Source: Parolsenella massiliensis
GTDB taxonomy: Bacteria; Actinomycetota; Coriobacteriia; Coriobacteriales; Atopobiaceae
Length of the DNA: 64,000 nt
Assembly (NCBI RefSeq): GCF_900143685.1
Contig: NZ_LT671675.1
Span: 1,171,985-1,235,984, forward strand
Direction: 5' to 3'
In this document: positions 12,057 through 45,724 of the stretch, piece by piece
Numbering within the stretch: position 1 is the stretch's first letter
Layout of the letters: each line of letters begins with the position of its first letter
Position numbers and translations under genes: made by a program
The notes under the pieces: generated by a model
What the model was told of the DNA's origin: nothing
The model's database searches: none
Seen by the model: only the letters and a program-made list of their open reading frames with translations

Positions 12057-12171
12057 GGATCCTCCCCTCGGCCAGCGCTCCCGCCGGCCAACGCTTGCAA
12101 ACGTCCCAATTATAGAAGGGTGGACGCGGGACGACCGGGCCCCAACCCGCGCACCGCCCCAACTCAAAACG

Positions 12172-12252
12172 CCGAGAATGAAAGTTGGGACAAACGCGCC
12201 AACAAAACCCCAGTTGGCGCATGGCGAAATGTCCCAAAAATCATTCTCGGCG
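12172..12252. repeat. 81-bp palindromic repeat, family A copy 1
   Basis: The ends CCGAGAATGA and TCATTCTCGG (12170-12181 and 12241-12252 with flanks) are perfect inverted repeats. Inside, TTGGGACA pairs with TGTCCCAA and GCGCCAAC with GTTGGCGC, so the unit folds into one long interrupted hairpin. A second copy of exactly the same length (81 bp) and high similarity is at 23508-23588. It lies between the aminopeptidase start and the adhesin stop. No open reading frame is encoded. Confidence 0.85.
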
Positions 12253-12261
12253 AATGGGTGA

Positions 12262-15200
12262 CTAGCGGTGGCGACGGCGCACAAGGATGGCCGCGGCGAT
12301 GACGGCAAGGCCGGCAACGGCGAGGGTGGCCTCGACGGCGGTGTCTGCGAGCGGGTCTCCCGTCTGGGGGAGTTGCTTGTCGGCAGGCGTGTCGGGGCTT
12401 CCGCCCTCGTTGGCGGTCGGCTTGTTTCCGCCCGTGTTGCCGCCCGTGTTGCCGCCATGGTCCCCGGCGTCGTAGCGGTTCGTGAACACAAGCGAATCGT
12501 CCGAGGAAACCGTGGTCGTGAGGTTGCCCTCACGATCGTCGGTTACGGAGACCGTCACCGTATAGGTGCTGGCGTCATACGTCACGCCAGTCTGTCCGTC
12601 GTTTCTCTCGGAGAGCCGGTATGTGAACGTCTTGCCAGCGTCTGCAGCCGTGTAGGGCACCATGAACGTCACGGAGCCGTCATCGGCGTTCTTTGCCGCC
12701 TGGACCACCTCGCCCGTATCGGCATCGGTGAGCTCGAACGTGAACTGGCCGGCAGAGAGCGTGGCGCCCTCGAGTTGCTTCGTGGCGCTGATGCGCGCCG
12801 TGGTGTCGGCCGGAGCGTAGGAGTTGTGGAAGGCCGGGTTGCCGTTCGGATAGGTCACGGCCGTCTTGAGCACGCCCGCGCCGTCATCGGTCACGCTGAC
12901 GTGAACGCCAAACGCATGCGTGTCGTATGTGACGCCACGTGTCTCGCCAGGCACGACCTCGCGAACGGTGTAGGTGTGCTCGCCGGGTTTGTCGTAGCTC
13001 TCGTCAAACGAGAAGTTGCCCTGGGAGTCGTTCGTCGTCGTGGCGACGCGCTCACCCGTTGCGGCGTCAACAAGCTCGAAGGTAAACTCGCCAGCACGCA
13101 GGTCACGGCCACCAAGCGCCTTAGTTCCGCTGATAGTGACAGACGCAGACGTCACGGCATAGGCGTTCGTGAACGAGAACTTCGAGCCGGTCCCAAGGTC
13201 CTTGCCGTCTCTGTCCGCGACGTTTGCGGAGACCGTGCCGTCGCCGTTGTCACGGACGCTGACCTTCACGGTCTTCGTGGACTTATCGACCGAGACGACC
13301 GCCGGCGAGTCACTCGTCGTGGTCTCCGTCACCGTGTACACATACGTCTTACCGGCGTCGGCCATCATGTAGCCGATGGTGCCAAAGTCGACGTTGCCAC
13401 CCGCGTTGCGCACGACCTTCGTCTGGCCGTCCGAGCCCTGGGGCATGGGCGCGCCGTCGATGCCCTCGAGCGTGAACGCATACTTACCCTCGATGCTCGG
13501 GGCGTTGTAGCCCTCGCCCTCGGGCACGTCGTAGCACTTCTCGCCGTTCATGCTCACCGTCGCCTTGGCGCCGGCACCATACTCGTTCACGAACGTGAGG
13601 TGGTCGGCCCTGTCCGGGTAGGCGACGCTCGTGAAGAGCGTGCCATCGCCGTTGTCGGCCACCGTCACCGTGACGCCCAGCTGCCCCACGACACCCGTGA
13701 CGCCCTTGGGCATCTTGCCCGTCTCGGTCACGGTGTAGGCGTGCTGGCCCACGTCTGCCTGCGTGTAGGCGAGTGCGTGGTCAAACGTGATGGTGCCATC
13801 CGCCTCGTTCGTGCCGGTGGCGACGGGTTTGCCAGCCTCGTCGGTCACGGAGAAGTGGAACTCACCGGCCACCTGGTCACGGCCGCTCAGCACCTTCTCG
13901 GCCTGAATCTTGGCCGTGCCGGTTGCTGCGTAGGAGTTCGTGAGGCTCACCTTGGCTGCGTTGGCAACGTGGGCGTCACCCGTCTTGTAGACGTACTCGG
14001 CGCCATCGACCGTCGTCGTGGCCGTGAGCGTGCCATCGCCGTTGTCGGCCACAGAGATCGTGATGGCATGCGGCGCCGTGTCGTTCGTGTAGCCGGCGCC
14101 ACCAACCTTCGTCTCGGTGAGCTCGTAGGCATACGTCTTGCCGGCGTTGTCCTGCGTGAGCTCAAGGCCGTCGGGGATGAGGTTCACCGGGCCCGCCTCG
14201 CCCGCGTCCGCCGCGGGAGACGCGAAGACCTTGCCCTGCTCGGGGATGTCGAGAAGCGCGGCGGACTCGGACGCGCCCACGGCGCCGTCGGCGTCGACGG
14301 GCCTCAGCGTGAACTCGAACTGGCCGGCCTGCATGGCGTGACCCGTGAGCGTCTTTTCGAGCGTGAGGCCGCCCGCGGCGCCATAGTTGAGCGAGGAGCC
14401 ATACCTGTTCGTGAAGTTGGCGGTGGCGCCGCCAGCCGCAAGCGTGCCGCTCGCCTCGTTCGTGGCCGTGCCGTTGACGCAGGCCGTGTAGCCGGCCGTG
14501 CCCTCCTCGGTTACGCGGTAGCCCACGCCCGTGGCAAGGCGCGAGAGCTCGAGGCTCTGGCCGTCCTTGAGCGACACCTGGGCCCGGCCATGCTCGTCAA
14601 ACGTCACGTCAACGTCCTCGGCAGACGCATCAGTCTGGCCGCGCGTGAGGCGCGTGGCCGCGAGCGTTCCCGCAAACGGCGTGCCGTCGGCGTTCGTGAG
14701 TTCCACGTCAAACGTGAAGTCGCGGTTGGCGTCGCCGCCCTCGACCGTCTTTGAGATCGTGAGGCTCGCCTTGTTGACCTCGACGGAGACCGGGTTCGTG
14801 GAGACCGCCGGACGGTCGCCCACCTTGACCGTCGCCGTGTTGTCCACCCTCGCCGCGGCCTTCTCGCCCACCTTGGCCGAGAAGCTCACGGAGCCGGATG
14901 CGCCGGGCGCCACGTCTGCGATGGTCCACGTAAGCACCCAGTGCCCGTCCTGCTGCGAGACCTCCGCCCCCGAGACGCTGCCGGAGACGGGCTCGAGACC
15001 CGCGTCGAGCACGTCCGTCACCGTGACGTCCGCCTGCTCGTCGCCGTCGTTTCTGTAGCCGATGCCAAAGTCGAGGACGTCACCCACCGCCACGCCGTCG
15101 GAGGCGCTGGCGCCACCGGAGGCCGAGACACTCTTCCTGGGCGTCCAGACCGTCACGGTGTCCGTGTCATACGAGTTGTCGCCCACGGTGATGGTGCCGG

Positions 15201-18200
15201 TGTTGTCGATTCTGTCAACGCCCGCGGGGCCATCCTTGCCCATGACCCTCACGGTGAGCGTCACGCTGCCGCTCGTGTTCGCGGCCTTGGTGCCGAGGTC
15301 CCACGTGACCTTGCCGTTATCGCCCAGAGCTCCGCCATCGCTTGCAGAGACGAACTCGACGCCGTCGGGAAGCGTGTCCGTGACGCTCACGCTCGCGTCG
15401 CCATCCGTGTTGTTCACCCACGTGAGCTCGTAGGTGAGCTCCTCGCCGACGGAGACGAGCCGGCCGTCCAGGCTCACCTTGTCATCGTCGTTCGCCTGGT
15501 AGACCCGCTTGGACGTCTTGCGCACGTTCTCGAAGGAGAGAGGGTCGGAGCCGGGCGCAAGGCGCGCCGTGAGCGTGCCGTTGCCGTTGTCCTCCACGCT
15601 GACGCGCACGTGCTTGACGCTCGTGTCGTAGGCCGTGCTGGGCTTCGCGTTCACCCCGCGGCTCTCGGCGACGTCGAACGTGAACGTGCCGGCGACCTTG
15701 AAGGTGATGTCGCCAAACTCGGAGGCGTGGTTGGCCGCGTCACGGGAGATCTCAAGGCCGCGCGCGTTGCCCGGAAGGGTGATGAGACCCTCCTTGACCG
15801 CATCTGTCGTGGCTTCGTCGCCAGGCGCAAGCGTGAAGGTGAACGCATCGCCCTCGTCCCAGTCGCGCGCGCTGCCGTCCTCGTTCACGAGGCTCTTGGT
15901 GACCCTGAGGCTTGCGGAGCCGTCGAGCGAGCCGGTGGCCTCGTAGGCGTTCGTGAACGTCAGCCTGTTGTTCTGGGAGATGTCGCCGGAGCTGGTCGTC
16001 TCGACGATCTTGCCGGAGATGGCATCCCCCTCTCCCTGCTGCTCCTCGTTGCCCTTTTTTCTGCTCACGAGCGAGAAGCCGAGGTCCTCATGCTTGCCCG
16101 TCTCGGTCACGGTGAAGTCGCCGCCTGCGGCAAGGCCGTAGACGCGAATGGTCTCCCCCGCCTTGATGGAGTGCTTGTCGCCGTCCTTGAGCTTGAAGGA
16201 ATCGCCCACGGCGTCGCCCGAGGCGTCGAAGACCTGCGCGTCGTACTTCTGGGTGTTGTTGATGCCGCTTCCGAGCAGGCCGTTCGAGGGAAGCCTAAAC
16301 GTGTACTCGAAGGTGAGGTCATCGCCGTTGGCGTCTGTCGAAGGCACCGTCACGCCAGAATCAGACGTCACCTGCTTCGTGACCTCGAGTTGCGCGACGC
16401 GTTGGTCCGTGTACTGGACGCCCGTGGCGGAGGTGAAGAGTTGGTTGAGCCTCATGGTGCCGAGGTCGTCGCCCTTCTCGGGCTTGCCGTCCTGCTGGAT
16501 TCGCATGCGGTTGATGCCCGTGTCCGCATAGATGATGGGCAGGCTGCCGTCGGACGTGACGTACTTGAGGACATCGCCCGAGGAGGACACCTCTGGGCTG
16601 TAGCTCATCTTCATGGGGTTGGTGTTGACGTCTGCCGGGGTGATTCCCTGCGCCGTGCATTCGTCCCAGATGAGGCCGTCTTCGGTCTCCGTGGCGCTCT
16701 CGAGCGTACCGGCGACCTTCGCGAGCGTCTCGTCGACCGAGTCTCCGGAGCCATACTGGGACAGCGCGCTCAGAAGCGAACCGGCGCCGCTCATGCTGCG
16801 GACGCCATCTCCCTCGCTGCCAGCGTCGACGTAGACGCCCGAGTTGTCGACGATGACCTTCGTGACCGTGTCGTTGGCGTGATAGCCGTCCGGGGCACCG
16901 GTCTCCGCCAAGTAATAGGTGCCGTTCGTGAGCGCCCTCTTGTTCGTGGAGTCCAAGGGGAAGCTTGCGGCTCCCTCAAGGGAGTACGGGAAGGTCATCG
17001 AGCCGGTCGTGACGCTGTCGATGGGCTGCGCGCTGTCCTTTACCCTGTAGTTGCCGTTTCCGTCATCCTCGACCGATTCGGCCGCGTAGAGGGAGAAGGT
17101 GGCACCGGAGACGGGGTTTCCCTTCTCGTCCACCTTCTGGACGAAGAGACGGTTCTGGACGTTGGTGACGAGCAGCTTCGCGGCAAACTGGCGGGTAAAG
17201 TTGTCTGTGTCGACGCGGACGGTGTTGTCCTCCGTGGCTCCGTCGAGGGTGTTGGCGGTGGTGTAGTAGACGGCAACGGTGTACTTGGCGTTTGCCATCT
17301 GGTCGCTGGCCATCATGTAGGCGTAGTCGCGCGCGTCACCAGGCAGGTCGTTGAGCTCGACCTGGTACTGGCCGCTCGTCGTGAGCGCGAAGGTGGAGCC
17401 GCCCTGCTGCCGGACGGCCTTGATGGCACCGGCGAGGTCTCCGTTGCCGACGGTCTTGTAGCCGTTGGCGGCGTCTCCCGCGAGAGCCTTCCACGTACCG
17501 TCGTCGTCCTTCATGTAGACGACGGCGAACATGGTGCCGTTGCTGGTCGATGGCTTGATGGCACTCGAGTCGTCCGCGGCCCCGAGGTCGCTTGGCGCAG
17601 TGAGCGTCTCCTTCGAGGCGACGTAGCCGCCGTTGAGCCACCTGCGGTTGACCGTGAAGCCATCCTGCGTGTCTGTGGGGGACTGCAGCGTGCCGCCGCT
17701 GGTGCCACCCTCGCGCTGCGACCTGACGTACTCGAGGTGCATCGTTCCGTCATGCGACGTGACGCTCGAGTGGTAGCCGTCGGGCACGCCGATCTCCTTG
17801 AGCACGAAGTGGGTCGTGCCGGCGTCCGCCTCCTTGTCGAAGGAGATCACGGAGTGGTCGTTGACGTTCGTGAAGTAGAGCTGGCCGTTGGCGTCGGTCG
17901 TGCCCGTGGCGATGGGGTCGCCGGAGACGTTGTAGTTCTCGTCGGCCTTGTAGAGCTCGAACTTGGCGCCCTGGACGGGGTTGCCGTTCTGGTCGATCTT
18001 CAAGAGCTCGGAGACGGGCTGGGTCACGAGGTTGAACTTGAGGTGCATGTTGGAGGCGTAGGCCCCGCGCTCTAGGTAGTAGAACTTGAGCGTATGCTGG
18101 GAGTCGGCCGCGAAGGTGTTGCCAGAGAAGTTGCCGGTCGACACTCCCGCCGCCTCGAAGAGGCTCTTGAGCGTGCCCACGCTCTTGTCGTTGACCTTGA

Positions 18201-19104
18201 CGTCTCCGGTGTGGAAGTTGATGTTGAGCGCGGCGGATTCGTGGATGCCACCGAGGTCGCCCACGAGGACGTCGTCGATGTAGACCCAGACGTCGTCGTC
18301 TCCGGAGAATTCGAACTCCATGTCGCGGGGGCTGCCGTTGTAGTCGGTCTTTCCAGCGACGCCGTTTTCTGCCGGCTGGATGAACTGCGTGGACATCGAC
18401 AGGCCGAAGTGGTGGTTCAAGGTCGAGGAGTCCGCGTTGGTGTTGGCATCAACCTGGCTGGCGGAGTTGAACGGGAAGAACATGCCCTTGAAGTCGTTGA
18501 ACTTCACTGCAGCGCTGTCGTAGACCTTGAACGAGTTGGTCGCGGCGTCATAGGACGCGAAGTTAGCTTGGCTGTCGTACTCGTAATAGCCATCAATGGT
18601 CTGGAGCAGCCCCTTCACGCCGAGATGCGCCTCCTTGCCCGGCTGGGTGCTCCAGTCGAAGAGGTAGGCAAGGGACTCGGAGGTGTAGGGGCGGCGGCCG
18701 CTCCTGTCTGACCCATGCGTGCCTGCAGCGATCTGGGGATAGCCGTCGTCTGACAGCGTGCTCGAGACATAGCTGGTTGGGGCGCCACTGCCACTCCAGC
18801 CGTTTATGCCAGCGCCGCTTCCGTCATTGAACTGAAGCTGATGGCCCGAATTGATGCCGGAGTTGCCAGAGATGGAGTTGGACTGGGCATCCGTGACCCA
18901 GTAGTCGAACAGGTTGATCGTCGTGCCAGACGGCGAGACCGTCGAGACGGTGGTCTCGGAAATGGCAAGCGCCGGGGACGGCGCGCCGACAAGTCCGATG
19001 ATGGCGACGAATACTCCCGCCGCCAGGGCGACGCCAAAGTGGCGAACGCGGCCAAAGGCCCTGCGCACACCATACGAACTTCTCGCGATATGCCTGCTCA
19101 ACAT
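12262..19104 (-). CDS. Giant LPXTG-anchored surface adhesin (fibro-slime, SpaA, DUF11 and Spy0128-type domains)
   Basis: A 2,280-residue secreted, sortase-anchored protein. Residues 1-47 form a long basic signal peptide ending PSPALA. A fibro-slime type head (about 60-355) contains GDDDVWVYIDD and a final YYLERGAYASNMHLKF. SpaA/Cna_B prealbumin-like domains follow at about 360-460 and 650-760, then a DUF7601-like segment, a Spy0128-like domain near 1060-1195 and two DUF11 domains (about 1220-1430). Five Spy0128-type modules (about 1580-2210, each starting like KxLxGRDxxAGEF) end the stalk. A GGNTGG linker, LPQTG (2245-2249), a hydrophobic helix and RRRHR form the anchor. Isopeptide cross-links are expected. 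No sortase gene is in the window. ATG at 19104 with GGGGAGA; the frame is also open through a G11 tract to a GTG at 19182. Confidence 0.93.
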   Translation of the reverse strand: MLSRHIARSSYGVRRAFGRVRHFGVALAAGVFVAIIGLVGAPSPALAISETTVSTVSPSGTTINLFDYWVTDAQSNSISGNSGINSGHQLQFNDGSGAGINGWSGSGAPTSYVSSTLSDDGYPQIAAGTHGSDRSGRRPYTSESLAYLFDWSTQPGKEAHLGVKGLLQTIDGYYEYDSQANFASYDAATNSFKVYDSAAVKFNDFKGMFFPFNSASQVDANTNADSSTLNHHFGLSMSTQFIQPAENGVAGKTDYNGSPRDMEFEFSGDDDVWVYIDDVLVGDLGGIHESAALNINFHTGDVKVNDKSVGTLKSLFEAAGVSTGNFSGNTFAADSQHTLKFYYLERGAYASNMHLKFNLVTQPVSELLKIDQNGNPVQGAKFELYKADENYNVSGDPIATGTTDANGQLYFTNVNDHSVISFDKEADAGTTHFVLKEIGVPDGYHSSVTSHDGTMHLEYVRSQREGGTSGGTLQSPTDTQDGFTVNRRWLNGGYVASKETLTAPSDLGAADDSSAIKPSTSNGTMFAVVYMKDDDGTWKALAGDAANGYKTVGNGDLAGAIKAVRQQGGSTFALTTSGQYQVELNDLPGDARDYAYMMASDQMANAKYTVAVYYTTANTLDGATEDNTVRVDTDNFTRQFAAKLLVTNVQNRLFVQKVDEKGNPVSGATFSLYAAESVEDDGNGNYRVKDSAQPIDSVTTGSMTFPYSLEGAASFPLDSTNKRALTNGTYYLAETGAPDGYHANDTVTKVIVDNSGVYVDAGSEGDGVRSMSGAGSLLSALSQYGSGDSVDETLAKVAGTLESATETEDGLIWDECTAQGITPADVNTNPMKMSYSPEVSSSGDVLKYVTSDGSLPIIYADTGINRMRIQQDGKPEKGDDLGTMRLNQLFTSATGVQYTDQRVAQLEVTKQVTSDSGVTVPSTDANGDDLTFEYTFRLPSNGLLGSGINNTQKYDAQVFDASGDAVGDSFKLKDGDKHSIKAGETIRVYGLAAGGDFTVTETGKHEDLGFSLVSRKKGNEEQQGEGDAISGKIVETTSSGDISQNNRLTFTNAYEATGSLDGSASLRVTKSLVNEDGSARDWDEGDAFTFTLAPGDEATTDAVKEGLITLPGNARGLEISRDAANHASEFGDITFKVAGTFTFDVAESRGVNAKPSTAYDTSVKHVRVSVEDNGNGTLTARLAPGSDPLSFENVRKTSKRVYQANDDDKVSLDGRLVSVGEELTYELTWVNNTDGDASVSVTDTLPDGVEFVSASDGGALGDNGKVTWDLGTKAANTSGSVTLTVRVMGKDGPAGVDRIDNTGTITVGDNSYDTDTVTVWTPRKSVSASGGASASDGVAVGDVLDFGIGYRNDGDEQADVTVTDVLDAGLEPVSGSVSGAEVSQQDGHWVLTWTIADVAPGASGSVSFSAKVGEKAAARVDNTATVKVGDRPAVSTNPVSVEVNKASLTISKTVEGGDANRDFTFDVELTNADGTPFAGTLAATRLTRGQTDASAEDVDVTFDEHGRAQVSLKDGQSLELSRLATGVGYRVTEEGTAGYTACVNGTATNEASGTLAAGGATANFTNRYGSSLNYGAAGGLTLEKTLTGHAMQAGQFEFTLRPVDADGAVGASESAALLDIPEQGKVFASPAADAGEAGPVNLIPDGLELTQDNAGKTYAYELTETKVGGAGYTNDTAPHAITISVADNGDGTLTATTTVDGAEYVYKTGDAHVANAAKVSLTNSYAATGTAKIQAEKVLSGRDQVAGEFHFSVTDEAGKPVATGTNEADGTITFDHALAYTQADVGQHAYTVTETGKMPKGVTGVVGQLGVTVTVADNGDGTLFTSVAYPDRADHLTFVNEYGAGAKATVSMNGEKCYDVPEGEGYNAPSIEGKYAFTLEGIDGAPMPQGSDGQTKVVRNAGGNVDFGTIGYMMADAGKTYVYTVTETTTSDSPAVVSVDKSTKTVKVSVRDNGDGTVSANVADRDGKDLGTGSKFSFTNAYAVTSASVTISGTKALGGRDLRAGEFTFELVDAATGERVATTTNDSQGNFSFDESYDKPGEHTYTVREVVPGETRGVTYDTHAFGVHVSVTDDGAGVLKTAVTYPNGNPAFHNSYAPADTTARISATKQLEGATLSAGQFTFELTDADTGEVVQAAKNADDGSVTFMVPYTAADAGKTFTYRLSERNDGQTGVTYDASTYTVTVSVTDDREGNLTTTVSSDDSLVFTNRYDAGDHGGNTGGNTGGNKPTANEGGSPDTPADKQLPQTGDPLADTAVEATLAVAGLAVIAAAILVRRRHR

Positions 19105-19148
19105 GGTAATTCTCCCCACTTCAAGTGAGGCTGGGAGAGCGCCTCTCA

Positions 19149-19217
19149 CCCCCCCCCCCGCGTCTCGCCTCATCAATAGCACTACGTAAAATATTACTAC
19201 TGGGGGGGGTTATGAAA
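19149..19217 (-). promoter_or_regulatory. Candidate phase-variable promoter/leader of the adhesin (G11 and C8 tracts)
   Basis: On the minus strand a G11 tract (19149-19159) lies 45 bases upstream of the adhesin start. Further upstream a C8 tract (19202-19209) falls between TTTCAT (19212-19217) and either TATTTT (19188-19193, 18-base spacer) or TAATAT (19191-19196, 15-base spacer). Tract-length changes could therefore alter promoter spacing, or leader structure and reading frame. The AT-rich block contrasts with the GC-rich surroundings. Promoter boxes are predictions. Confidence 0.55.
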
Positions 19218-19288
19218 TAGACCTGAACAGGGGGGATTGAACTATCGGTGAGTTTTGCGGAGGGTGGCTGGGGACCGGCACACGGTCC

Positions 19289-20218
19289 CTACTCCCCGTG
19301 CACGACGACCTCGAGGCCGGCAGACTCGACGAGCGAGACGATGCGTCCGACGTCCGCCTCGGCAAGCGGGGGCACGCCGCTCATCTCGTAGTCGAGTCCC
19401 ACGGAGGAGTACTTGCCCTCCCCCAGCTGGTGGAATGGCAACACGTCCGCACGGCGTATGCCAAGGCTTGCGGCACGATGGGCATTCGCGAGCACGCAGG
19501 CGTCCGCGTCGGTGTAGCCGGGGATGATGGGCATGCGAGCCACGACGTGCCCGCCCGCCTCGATGACGCGCGCGAGGTTGGCGTCGCGCACGGCGGGGTC
19601 GATGCCCGTGACGGCAAGGCTCCGCTTGCGATCGGCGACCTTGAAGTCCACGAGAAAGGCGTCGCACGCCGCCACGAGGCGCTCGGGCTCCACGGCAAGC
19701 GGCGTGGCGAGCGTCGTCTCGAGCGCGGTGGACGCCCCGCCCGCATGGCAGAGCTCGAGCAGCGCCAGAACGGCGCGCTGGCGGGCGGCGCCGGCCAGGC
19801 ACTCGCCGCCGCTCACGGTGACGCCACCTCCGCTCTCCTCGTAAAACGGCAGATCGCGGAGGAGCTCGGCGGCCAGCTCGTCCACGGCGCGCCACTGGCC
19901 GAGAAGCTCCTTGGCAGCCGCCGGGCAGCGCTCGGGCGGCGTGTCGCAGGGGGCGCCGTTTGCGTCGCGACGCCCGTCCGCGCGCACCGAGCAGCCCAGG
20001 CAGAGCCTCTCGTGCCAGCTGACCTCAGGCTCAAACGACAGGTTCTCGGGGTTGCAGCACCACGGACAGCGAAACGGGCAGCCCTTGGTGAATGCCACGG
20101 AGCGAATCCCGCCGCCGTCGTGGAGCGAGAAGCGCTGGACGTTCGTGACGCACAGCCTGAGGGCGCCGTCCGCCGCGCCGCCCGCAGCGGTCGCTCGCCC
20201 GTCCGCGCTACAGCACAT
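19289..20218 (-). CDS. Glycyl radical enzyme activating enzyme (radical SAM)
   Basis: Radical SAM protein (309 residues) that installs the glycyl radical on the enzyme encoded just upstream. The cluster-binding CxxxCxxC is seen as GCPFRCPWC near residue 45; the preceding DGGGIRSVAFTKG is the usual activase lead-in. A cysteine-rich insert after it (CLGCSVR...CDTPPERCP) looks like a shortened version of the extra ferredoxin-like cluster region. GGVTVSGGE follows as in PflA. The ATG at 20218 overlaps the end of the enzyme gene by 11 bases, with AGGA upstream, so translation is coupled. Confidence 0.93.
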   Translation of the reverse strand: MCCSADGRATAAGGAADGALRLCVTNVQRFSLHDGGGIRSVAFTKGCPFRCPWCCNPENLSFEPEVSWHERLCLGCSVRADGRRDANGAPCDTPPERCPAAAKELLGQWRAVDELAAELLRDLPFYEESGGGVTVSGGECLAGAARQRAVLALLELCHAGGASTALETTLATPLAVEPERLVAACDAFLVDFKVADRKRSLAVTGIDPAVRDANLARVIEAGGHVVARMPIIPGYTDADACVLANAHRAASLGIRRADVLPFHQLGEGKYSSVGLDYEMSGVPPLAEADVGRIVSLVESAGLEVVVHGE

Positions 20219-44975: not shown

Positions 44976-45710
44976 TCAGCCGACGACGTTGAGACGGTCG
45001 ACAAGGGCCGGCAGGGCGTCTGCGAGCTCGCTCATGGGCCCGCTCCAGGCGGCGCGGCCGGGGCGCGCGTGGCCCACGTAGGCCGTGGGCATGCCGATGT
45101 CGGGGCGCGGGAAGTCGCGCTTGGCGTCGTTGCCCACCATGAGGCACTCCTCGGGGGCAAGGCCGAGCGAGGAGACGAACTCCTCGTAGTAGCGGGCGCG
45201 GGGCTTGAGGCGCGTCGAGTTGCCCATGTGGCTCACGCGGGCAAACGGCATGTCGGAGATGTGCGCCCAGCCCATGCGCGTGCGGATGCAGACTTCCGAG
45301 AAGCTCGGGTTCGTGGCGAGCGCCACGGCAAGGCCCATGGAGCGTGCACACTCGATGGCCGCGATGCCGCCCTCCTTGGGGCGCGCCGAGACGATGCCGC
45401 CGCGGCGGCGGGGCAGGACGTTTTGCTCGTAGTAGGAGATGGCGTCCGTGATGGCAGGGTCTGCCATGGGCACGCCCGTGAGCCGCTCGATGGTGGCCGA
45501 GAACAGCTCCAGGTTCGTGAGGCCGTCCGTGCGGGCGTCGCTCGCAATCGCGAGGTAGGCGCGCGCCCAGGCCCCGCCAAAGGCGAGCGCGGACGTACCG
45601 GAGATCTGCGACAGGATGCGCGAGACGTCGGCGATGTAGGCGGTCATGAAGGCCGTGAGGTTGATGTCGAGCAGCGTGTCGTCCATGTCGAACAGAACGG
45701 CCTTGATCAT
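44976..45710 (-). CDS. HAD-superfamily hydrolase
   Basis: 244-residue phosphatase-type HAD: motif I DMDDTLLD (Asp8/Asp10), motif II ATNPS, a lysine/arginine segment and motif IV GNDAKRDFP. A helical cap follows motif I. Substrate unknown; small phosphorylated metabolites are typical. The ribosome binding site is a run of ten G (45715-45724), four bases from the ATG, so tract length directly sets Shine-Dalgarno spacing. Confidence 0.85.
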   Translation of the reverse strand: MIKAVLFDMDDTLLDINLTAFMTAYIADVSRILSQISGTSALAFGGAWARAYLAIASDARTDGLTNLELFSATIERLTGVPMADPAITDAISYYEQNVLPRRRGGIVSARPKEGGIAAIECARSMGLAVALATNPSFSEVCIRTRMGWAHISDMPFARVSHMGNSTRLKPRARYYEEFVSSLGLAPEECLMVGNDAKRDFPRPDIGMPTAYVGHARPGRAAWSGPMSELADALPALVDRLNVVG

Positions 45711-45714
45711 GTGA

Positions 45715-45724
45715 CCCCCCCCCC
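45715..45724 (-). promoter_or_regulatory. G10 homopolymer acting as ribosome binding site
   Basis: On the minus strand AAAGGGGGGGGGGTCAC leads straight into the HAD start codon. Homopolymers of this length slip during replication, so translation efficiency of the gene may vary between cells. Spacing of four bases from the tract end to ATG still suits initiation. Confidence 0.6.

What the first reader, a model, noticed from the sequence alone, without database searches (positions are those of the whole stretch)
19105..19235. Homopolymer tracts in the promoter and leader of the giant adhesin: candidate phase variation
On the minus strand a C8 tract (19202-19209) lies between TTTCAT and TATTTT/TAATAT, giving an 18- or 15-base spacer, and a G11 tract (19149-19159) lies 45 bases before the adhesin start. 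Poly-C/G tracts between -35 and -10 are an established mechanism of phase variation of surface proteins (e.g. Bordetella fim, Neisseria porA). The reading frame is also open through the G11 tract to GTG 19182 and ATG 19173, so slippage could fuse or break an N-terminal extension. By composition alone a G10-G11 run is not vanishingly rare in a GC-rich genome, but two runs beside one surface gene are suggestive.
Basis: partly seen in the sequence, partly recalled or inferred. Interest (0 to 1): 0.8.

Follow-up and report, generated by a model that had tools for sequence, protein, structure and literature searches.

The report
Poly-G slippage switch at adhesin promoter
A gut- or mouth-type actinobacterium carries two unstable runs of identical bases (C8 in the likely promoter, G11 in the untranslated leader) just before the gene for a giant cell-wall adhesin, and its relatives carry such G-runs at the front of the same gene family, so the adhesin is very probably switched up and down at random by copying slips, as already shown for pili of bifidobacteria.

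Summary
The tracts are real: C8 (19202-19209) and G11 (19149-19159), read on the minus strand, in the 184-nt gap between pflA and a 2280-aa LPXTG adhesin (fibro-slime, SpaA, FctA domains). They are not chance. G/C runs of 8 or more are strongly over-represented in this genome (22 seen, about 2 expected; of 10 or more: 9 seen, about 0.03 expected). Of 33 other Coriobacteriia homologs with a readable 5' end, 8 have a run of at least 9 there (0.04 expected). In relatives the run is G on the coding strand; most sit in signal-peptide codons, some intact genes being out of frame as assembled, the classic ON/OFF mark. C8 lies in the spacer of the best predicted promoter (TTCATA-17-TATTTT). G11 is not in a promoter: it lies in the leader, about +24 to +34, upstream of a good SD and ATG 19104. 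The N-terminal-extension idea is weak (leader GC3 0.62 against 0.87 in the gene). Most likely a slipped-strand contingency locus, a member of a known kind (nearest: Bifidobacterium breve pili), here with 5'-noncoding tracts. Length variation itself could not be tested. It is part of a wider poly-G phasome in Atopobiaceae for which I found no report in the paper library.

The parts
12262..19104 (-). Giant LPXTG adhesin/pilin-like surface protein, 2280 aa from ATG 19104: signal peptide, fibro-slime region, SpaA, DUF11, DUF7601 and FctA (streptococcal pilin isopeptide) repeats, LPQTG anchor
   Evidence: Pfam; NCBIfam; Fibro_Slime 43.9 bits, just under its 45 cut-off
19102..19104 (-). Most likely start codon ATG
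   Evidence: SD GGGGAG 7 nt upstream, followed by a normal signal peptide; same layout in homologs
19112..19117 (-). Shine-Dalgarno GGGGAG, inside a predicted hairpin (19130-19124 with 19120-19114)
19149..19159 (-). G11 homopolymer tract in the 5' leader, about +24 to +34 from a predicted start at about 19182
19188..19193 (-). Predicted -10 TATTTT (overlaps alternative TAATAT 19196-19191)
19202..19209 (-). C8 homopolymer tract inside the 17-nt spacer of the predicted promoter
19211..19216 (-). Predicted -35 TTCATA
19105..19182 (-). In-frame open leader (GTG 19182 / ATG 19173 to ATG 19104); not coding-like (GC3 0.62)
19230..19235 (-). C6 run, below the usual slippage length; no role assigned
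19271..19289 (-). Stem-loop GGGACCG-TGTGC-CGGTCCC right after the pflA stop, separating the adhesin from pfl-pflA (no T run)
12121..19347 (.). Accessory cassette: the same-genus genome G001 has about 120 bp here between pflA and an M18 aminopeptidase

Best explanation
The 5' region of the adhesin is a slipped-strand (simple-sequence) contingency locus. During replication the G11 tract, and less often the C8 tract, gain or lose a base, so that sister cells differ in how much adhesin they make. C8 sits in the spacer of the sigma-70-type promoter, which at C8 has the optimal 17-nt spacing, so a change would weaken transcription (inferred). G11 lies in the transcribed leader upstream of the SD hairpin; it probably tunes promoter escape, leader structure or leader translation, by a route not resolved here. 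Shown: the tracts, their rarity, their placement, the accessory nature of the gene, and tracts at the 5' end of homologs, some in frame and some out of frame. Inferred: slippage, the promoter, and the effect on expression.
For: Excess of long G/C runs genome-wide. Two runs of 8 or more in one 184-nt gap: about 0.003 such gaps expected per genome. 8 of 33 other Coriobacteriia homologs have a run of 9 or more within 250 nt of the 5' end of the open frame, expected 0.04, p about 4e-17, in all of them G on the coding strand. Tracts lie in signal-peptide codons in Collinsella sp. An2, Olsenella porci, an uncultured Collinsella (L094), G036, G139 and G162, two of them out of frame as assembled with a long intact frame behind; in 5' noncoding DNA in C. 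massiliensis, and in C. aerofaciens plus an 85%-identical relative where the G10 and its flanks are almost invariant while DNA further upstream has diverged. Other long tracts of this genome adjoin surface or polysaccharide genes: a BspA/LRR protein with C10 in its signal peptide, a second SpaA protein, a Flg_new protein, an EPS operon. In B. breve a G11 tract of a sortase pilus gene slips strongly (37% G11, 59% G12 in one culture; PMC9187656); in Gardnerella most G/C tracts lie upstream of ORFs and one was shown to vary (PMC11287997).
Against: No read data or second strain, so no length variation was seen. The promoter is only predicted. C8 is near the lower limit for frequent slippage. Leader folding predicts little effect of G11 length. 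About half of the genome's long tracts are not next to surface genes. The assembly contains adapter-like junk elsewhere, so exact tract lengths may be off by one.
Confidence: 0.62

Rival explanations
1. Leader-peptide coupling: a ribosome starting on the leader (possibly leaderless at GTG 19182, where the predicted transcript begins) reads through G11; the tract length sets whether it stops just after the tract, in the SD hairpin, or runs into the adhesin frame, thereby opening or not opening the SD hairpin. This would work like the pil1 leader switch of Streptococcus gallolyticus.
For: Predicted +1 (about 19182) coincides with GTG 19182; open frame through the tract; SD lies in a hairpin; precedent PMC3894217.
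Against: No SD for a leader ORF, leader GC3 is not coding-like, no terminator with a T run; the SD hairpin is only modestly better than shuffles.
Confidence: 0.17
2. The tracts are neutral: once a G/C run passes about 8 bases it expands by mutation alone, and nothing depends on its length.
For: About half of the long runs of this genome are not at surface genes (priA gap, HAD genes, zinc-ribbon proteins); some lie in hairpin loops.
Against: Concentration at the 5' end of homologous adhesins in separate genera, uniform G orientation, near-invariant tract and flanks in the C. aerofaciens pair, and in G018 (45% GC) almost all of 12 runs at secreted surface proteins with a single 7-run in the genome.
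Confidence: 0.13
3. G11 is coding: the protein starts at ATG 19173 or GTG 19182 and slippage fuses or breaks an N-terminal extension.
For: Open frame; homologs do have coding tracts near the start.
Against: Good SD and complete signal peptide at ATG 19104; extension would put the tract about 45 codons before the hydrophobic core, against 3-16 in homologs; GC3 0.62; loss of the extension would leave ATG 19104 usable.
Confidence: 0.06
4. The runs are binding or structure elements (regulator site, G-quadruplex) whose length is fixed rather than switched.
For: The C. aerofaciens pair keeps exactly G10 with fixed flanks.
Against: Different tract positions and lengths (9-11) among homologs and out-of-frame coding tracts argue for switching.
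Confidence: 0.05

Closest known systems
Bifidobacterium breve UCC2003 sortase-pilus G-tract switches bbr_0113 (G11) and bbr_1889 (G10), Penno et al. 2022 (PMC9187656)
   Same: G9-G12 tract at the 5' end of a large LPXTG surface gene in a commensal actinobacterium; several relatives of the window adhesin have the same layout
   Different: In B. breve the tract is inside the coding sequence and switches the frame; in the window both tracts lie before the start codon, and no pilus sortase gene was seen next to it
Promoter-spacer homopolymer switches (Neisseria porA, Bordetella fim; from general knowledge, not tested from a paper)
   Same: C8 lies in the spacer of the predicted -35/-10 pair, with optimal spacing
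   Different: Short tract, predicted promoter only; the longer tract G11 is outside the promoter
Gardnerella homopolymer-tract phase variation (PMC11287997)
   Same: Many G/C tracts upstream of or in surface genes of an actinobacterium, length variation shown for one
   Different: A different class of Actinomycetota; effect of single upstream tracts not resolved there either
Streptococcus gallolyticus pil1 leader-peptide phase variation (PMC3894217)
   Same: Repeat in the transcribed leader of a sortase-anchored adhesin/pilus gene, followed by a stem-loop
   Different: GCAGA repeats in a leader ORF with RBS and a true terminator; neither is seen here
Helicobacter pylori sabA T-tract rheostat (PMC4081817)
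   Same: Homopolymer in 5' noncoding DNA of an adhesin gene tuning expression by length
   Different: T-tract upstream of -35, changing DNA geometry at the promoter

Membership tests
Simple-sequence (slipped-strand) contingency locus | Pure repeat tract long enough to slip (8-9 or more), beyond chance | tested here: met
   G11 and C8; genome-wide excess
Simple-sequence (slipped-strand) contingency locus | Tract placed where a length change can alter expression of a surface gene | tested here: met
   Predicted promoter spacer and leader of an LPXTG adhesin
Simple-sequence (slipped-strand) contingency locus | Tract length varies within clones or between strains | not testable with these tools
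   One genome per species held; no reads. Indirect only: in-frame and out-of-frame homologs
Simple-sequence (slipped-strand) contingency locus | Tract length changes expression | not testable with these tools
   Needs a reporter or immunodetection
Intragenic frame-switch type (B. breve pilus type) | Tract lies between the start codon and the rest of the coding sequence | tested here: not met
   Tract is 44 nt before ATG 19104, which has its own SD; leader not coding-like
Promoter-spacer type (porA/fim-like) | Tract lies between -35 and -10 of the active promoter | tested here: inconclusive
   C8: predicted promoter, p = 0.02 uncorrected among 64 placements; G11: no
Leader-peptide attenuation type (S. 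gallolyticus pil1) | Leader ORF with RBS running through the repeat, followed by a terminator | tested here: not met
   No SD before GTG 19182 / ATG 19173; no terminator found
Sortase-anchored fibro-slime/pilin-like adhesin | Signal peptide, isopeptide/SpaA-type domains and LPXTG anchor | tested here: met
   Pfam FctA, SpaA, Gram_pos_anchor; TIGR03786 six repeats

The most novel reading that the evidence does not exclude
Coriobacteriia have a broad poly-G/C phasome of surface proteins in which homologous adhesins carry the hypermutable tract at different regulatory levels (signal-peptide codons, leader, promoter), and the window adhesin has two independent tracts, giving a graded two-input switch (promoter spacing by C8, leader effect by G11).
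Probability: 0.3. Interest if true: 0.65.

Novelty: new member of a known kind. Interest (0 to 1): 0.5.

Why it matters
Phase variation by base runs is a textbook trait of Neisseria, Campylobacter and Helicobacter, and has lately been shown in bifidobacteria and Gardnerella. Finding it at adhesins and capsule-type genes across Atopobiaceae and Collinsella would mean that abundant, little-studied commensals hedge their surface in the same way. A single genome sequence or a bulk culture then misstates which adhesins a strain displays, and strain-level adhesion or immune studies of Collinsella and Olsenella would need tract-length typing.

Tried and rejected
G11 as a promoter spacer: rejected, best score -6.7. 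G11 acting by SD occlusion: predicted SD openness 0.39-0.53 for lengths 8-14, little effect. N-terminal extension: weak. Close orthologs of the leader: none; the only family hit below E 0.02 (G022, E 8.5e-4) lies in a stretch without a tract inside or against a coding region. Repeats or inverted repeats around the tracts: none. The p-value for homologs used 11 of 35; the correct count is 9 of 34 (8 of 33 without the window), redone. Papers on phase variation in Collinsella, Olsenella or Atopobium: none found in the held library.

Full report
1. What is there. The window lies at 1171985-1235984 of a 2.009-Mb single-contig genome. On the minus strand pfl and pflA are followed, after a 184-nt gap (19105-19288), by a 2280-aa surface protein (12262-19104) with signal peptide, fibro-slime, SpaA, DUF11, FctA/streptococcal-pilin isopeptide repeats and an LPQTG anchor. 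A 7-bp stem-loop follows the pflA stop, so the adhesin probably has its own promoter.

2. Is it more than chance? Yes. Exact G/C run counts in the genome are 131 (length 6), 15 (length 7), then 9, 4, 6, 2, 1 for lengths 8 to 12, leaving out a junk stretch at 1500675-1500899. Extrapolating the 6-to-7 decay gives about 1.9 runs of 8 or more, 0.22 of 9 or more and 0.025 of 10 or more, against 22, 13 and 9. About 0.003 intergenic gaps of this size with two runs of 8 or more are expected in the genome.

3. Promoter and leader. The best sigma-70-like pair in the 300 nt before the gene is TTCATA-17-TATTTT with C8 in the spacer, score 8.3; the best score in random 300-nt pieces of the window exceeds 7.2 in about 3%, and the tract-in-spacer test gives p = 0.02 without correction for 64 placements. 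The same test finds TTGACA-18(with G9)-TAGTGT at another locus of this genome (L041, p = 0.005). G11 cannot be in a spacer; with a start near 19182 it is at +24 to +34. The SD GGGGAG (19117-19112) lies in a small hairpin, and the predicted accessibility barely changes with tract length. The open frame through G11 is not coding-like (GC3 0.62 against 0.87) and has no SD, although its GTG coincides with the predicted transcript start, so leaderless translation is not excluded.

4. Relatives. The same-genus genome G001 has no adhesin: pflA is followed by an M18 aminopeptidase, so the adhesin is an accessory cassette. Of 34 distinct Coriobacteriia homologs with a readable 5' end (window included), 9 have a run of 9 or more within 250 nt of the start of the open frame (Olsenella porci adds a tenth just outside that limit); leaving the window out, 8 of 33 against 0.04 expected (p about 4e-17; 3e-10 even with the densest genome's rate). 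In the homologs the run is always G on the coding strand. In Collinsella sp. An2, an uncultured Collinsella, O. porci, G036, G139 and G162 it lies in the signal-peptide codons; An2 and G036 are out of frame as assembled although more than a thousand codons behind stay open. In C. massiliensis and in C. aerofaciens MCC370 the G10 is in 5' noncoding DNA; an 85%-identical relative of the latter keeps G10 and about 60 nt around it nearly unchanged. Bifidobacterium vansinderenii and B. oedipodis homologs have G9 and G11 after the start codon; the Bacillota homologs have no run of 8 or more near the start of the gene.

5. A wider phasome. In the window's genome other long tracts adjoin a BspA/LRR surface protein (C10 in the signal peptide, out of frame as assembled), a second SpaA protein (G12), a Flg_new surface protein, a NusG-like/WecG polysaccharide operon, and polysaccharide acyl- and glycosyltransferases. 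In G018, a 45%-GC family member, there are 12 runs of 9 or more but a single 7-run, nearly all at secreted surface proteins (aRib, GA, FIVAR, Flg_new domains).

6. Mechanism. Best supported: replication slippage at G11 (and C8) varies adhesin expression between cells. A G11 tract slips strongly in B. breve (PMC9187656). C8 would act through promoter spacing; the step by which G11 acts is unresolved (promoter escape, RNA structure, or leader translation as in S. gallolyticus pil1, PMC3894217). Nothing here shows that the lengths vary.

7. Known or new. The kind is known. The nearest precedent is B. breve; the window differs in having both tracts before the start codon, so it fails the intragenic-switch test while probably working to the same end. 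I found no paper on such switches in Collinsella, Olsenella or Atopobium in the held library, which lacks most subscription journals.

Noticed in passing
G000:C1:1500675-1500899 (L042 4001-4225): C10-A-C24-G-C22-A-C8-A-C15 followed by an A18 run and a sequence close to the Nextera Read 1 adapter (recognised from memory): assembly junk at a join, so homopolymer lengths in this assembly deserve caution.
   Followed up: partly
window 45715-45724: G10 (minus strand) ending 4 nt before the ATG of a HAD-type hydrolase (44976-45710), where the Shine-Dalgarno should be; the same layout at another HAD-type gene (L045) and at a DJ-1-like gene in G001 (L232). Tract length would change SD-ATG spacing.
   Followed up: partly
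G000:C1:1319000-1319008 (L041 3001-3009): G9 inside the spacer of a strong predicted promoter, TTGACA-18-TAGTGT (p = 0.005), before a small ORF next to a cysteine desulfurase-family gene.
   Followed up: partly
G000:C1:753775-753784 (L038): C10 in the signal-peptide codons of a BspA/PARCEL-repeat surface protein, out of frame as assembled: the plainest coding phase-variation candidate in this genome.
   Followed up: partly
G000:C1:583457-583468 (L233): G12 at the 5' end of a second giant SpaA/isopeptide LPXTG-type protein; a signal-peptide-like stretch and the mature part are in different frames as assembled.
   Followed up: no
G000:C1:359860-376602 (L032, L033, L034): Four tracts (G9, G11, G8, G8) in one polysaccharide locus: before a NusG-like/WecG operon, at the end of an acyltransferase, in a GT4-GT2 fusion frame, and before an HTH gene next to a chain-length-type gene.
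   Followed up: partly
G018 (L244-L252): 45%-GC Atopobiaceae genome with 12 G/C runs of 9 or more (nearly all exactly 9) but one 7-run, almost all at secreted surface proteins: a compact phasome worth its own study.
   Followed up: partly
G000:C1:1581032-1581083 (L044): A second pair of close tracts (C10 and C8 within 52 bp) near a zinc-ribbon/proline-rich protein gene.
   Followed up: no
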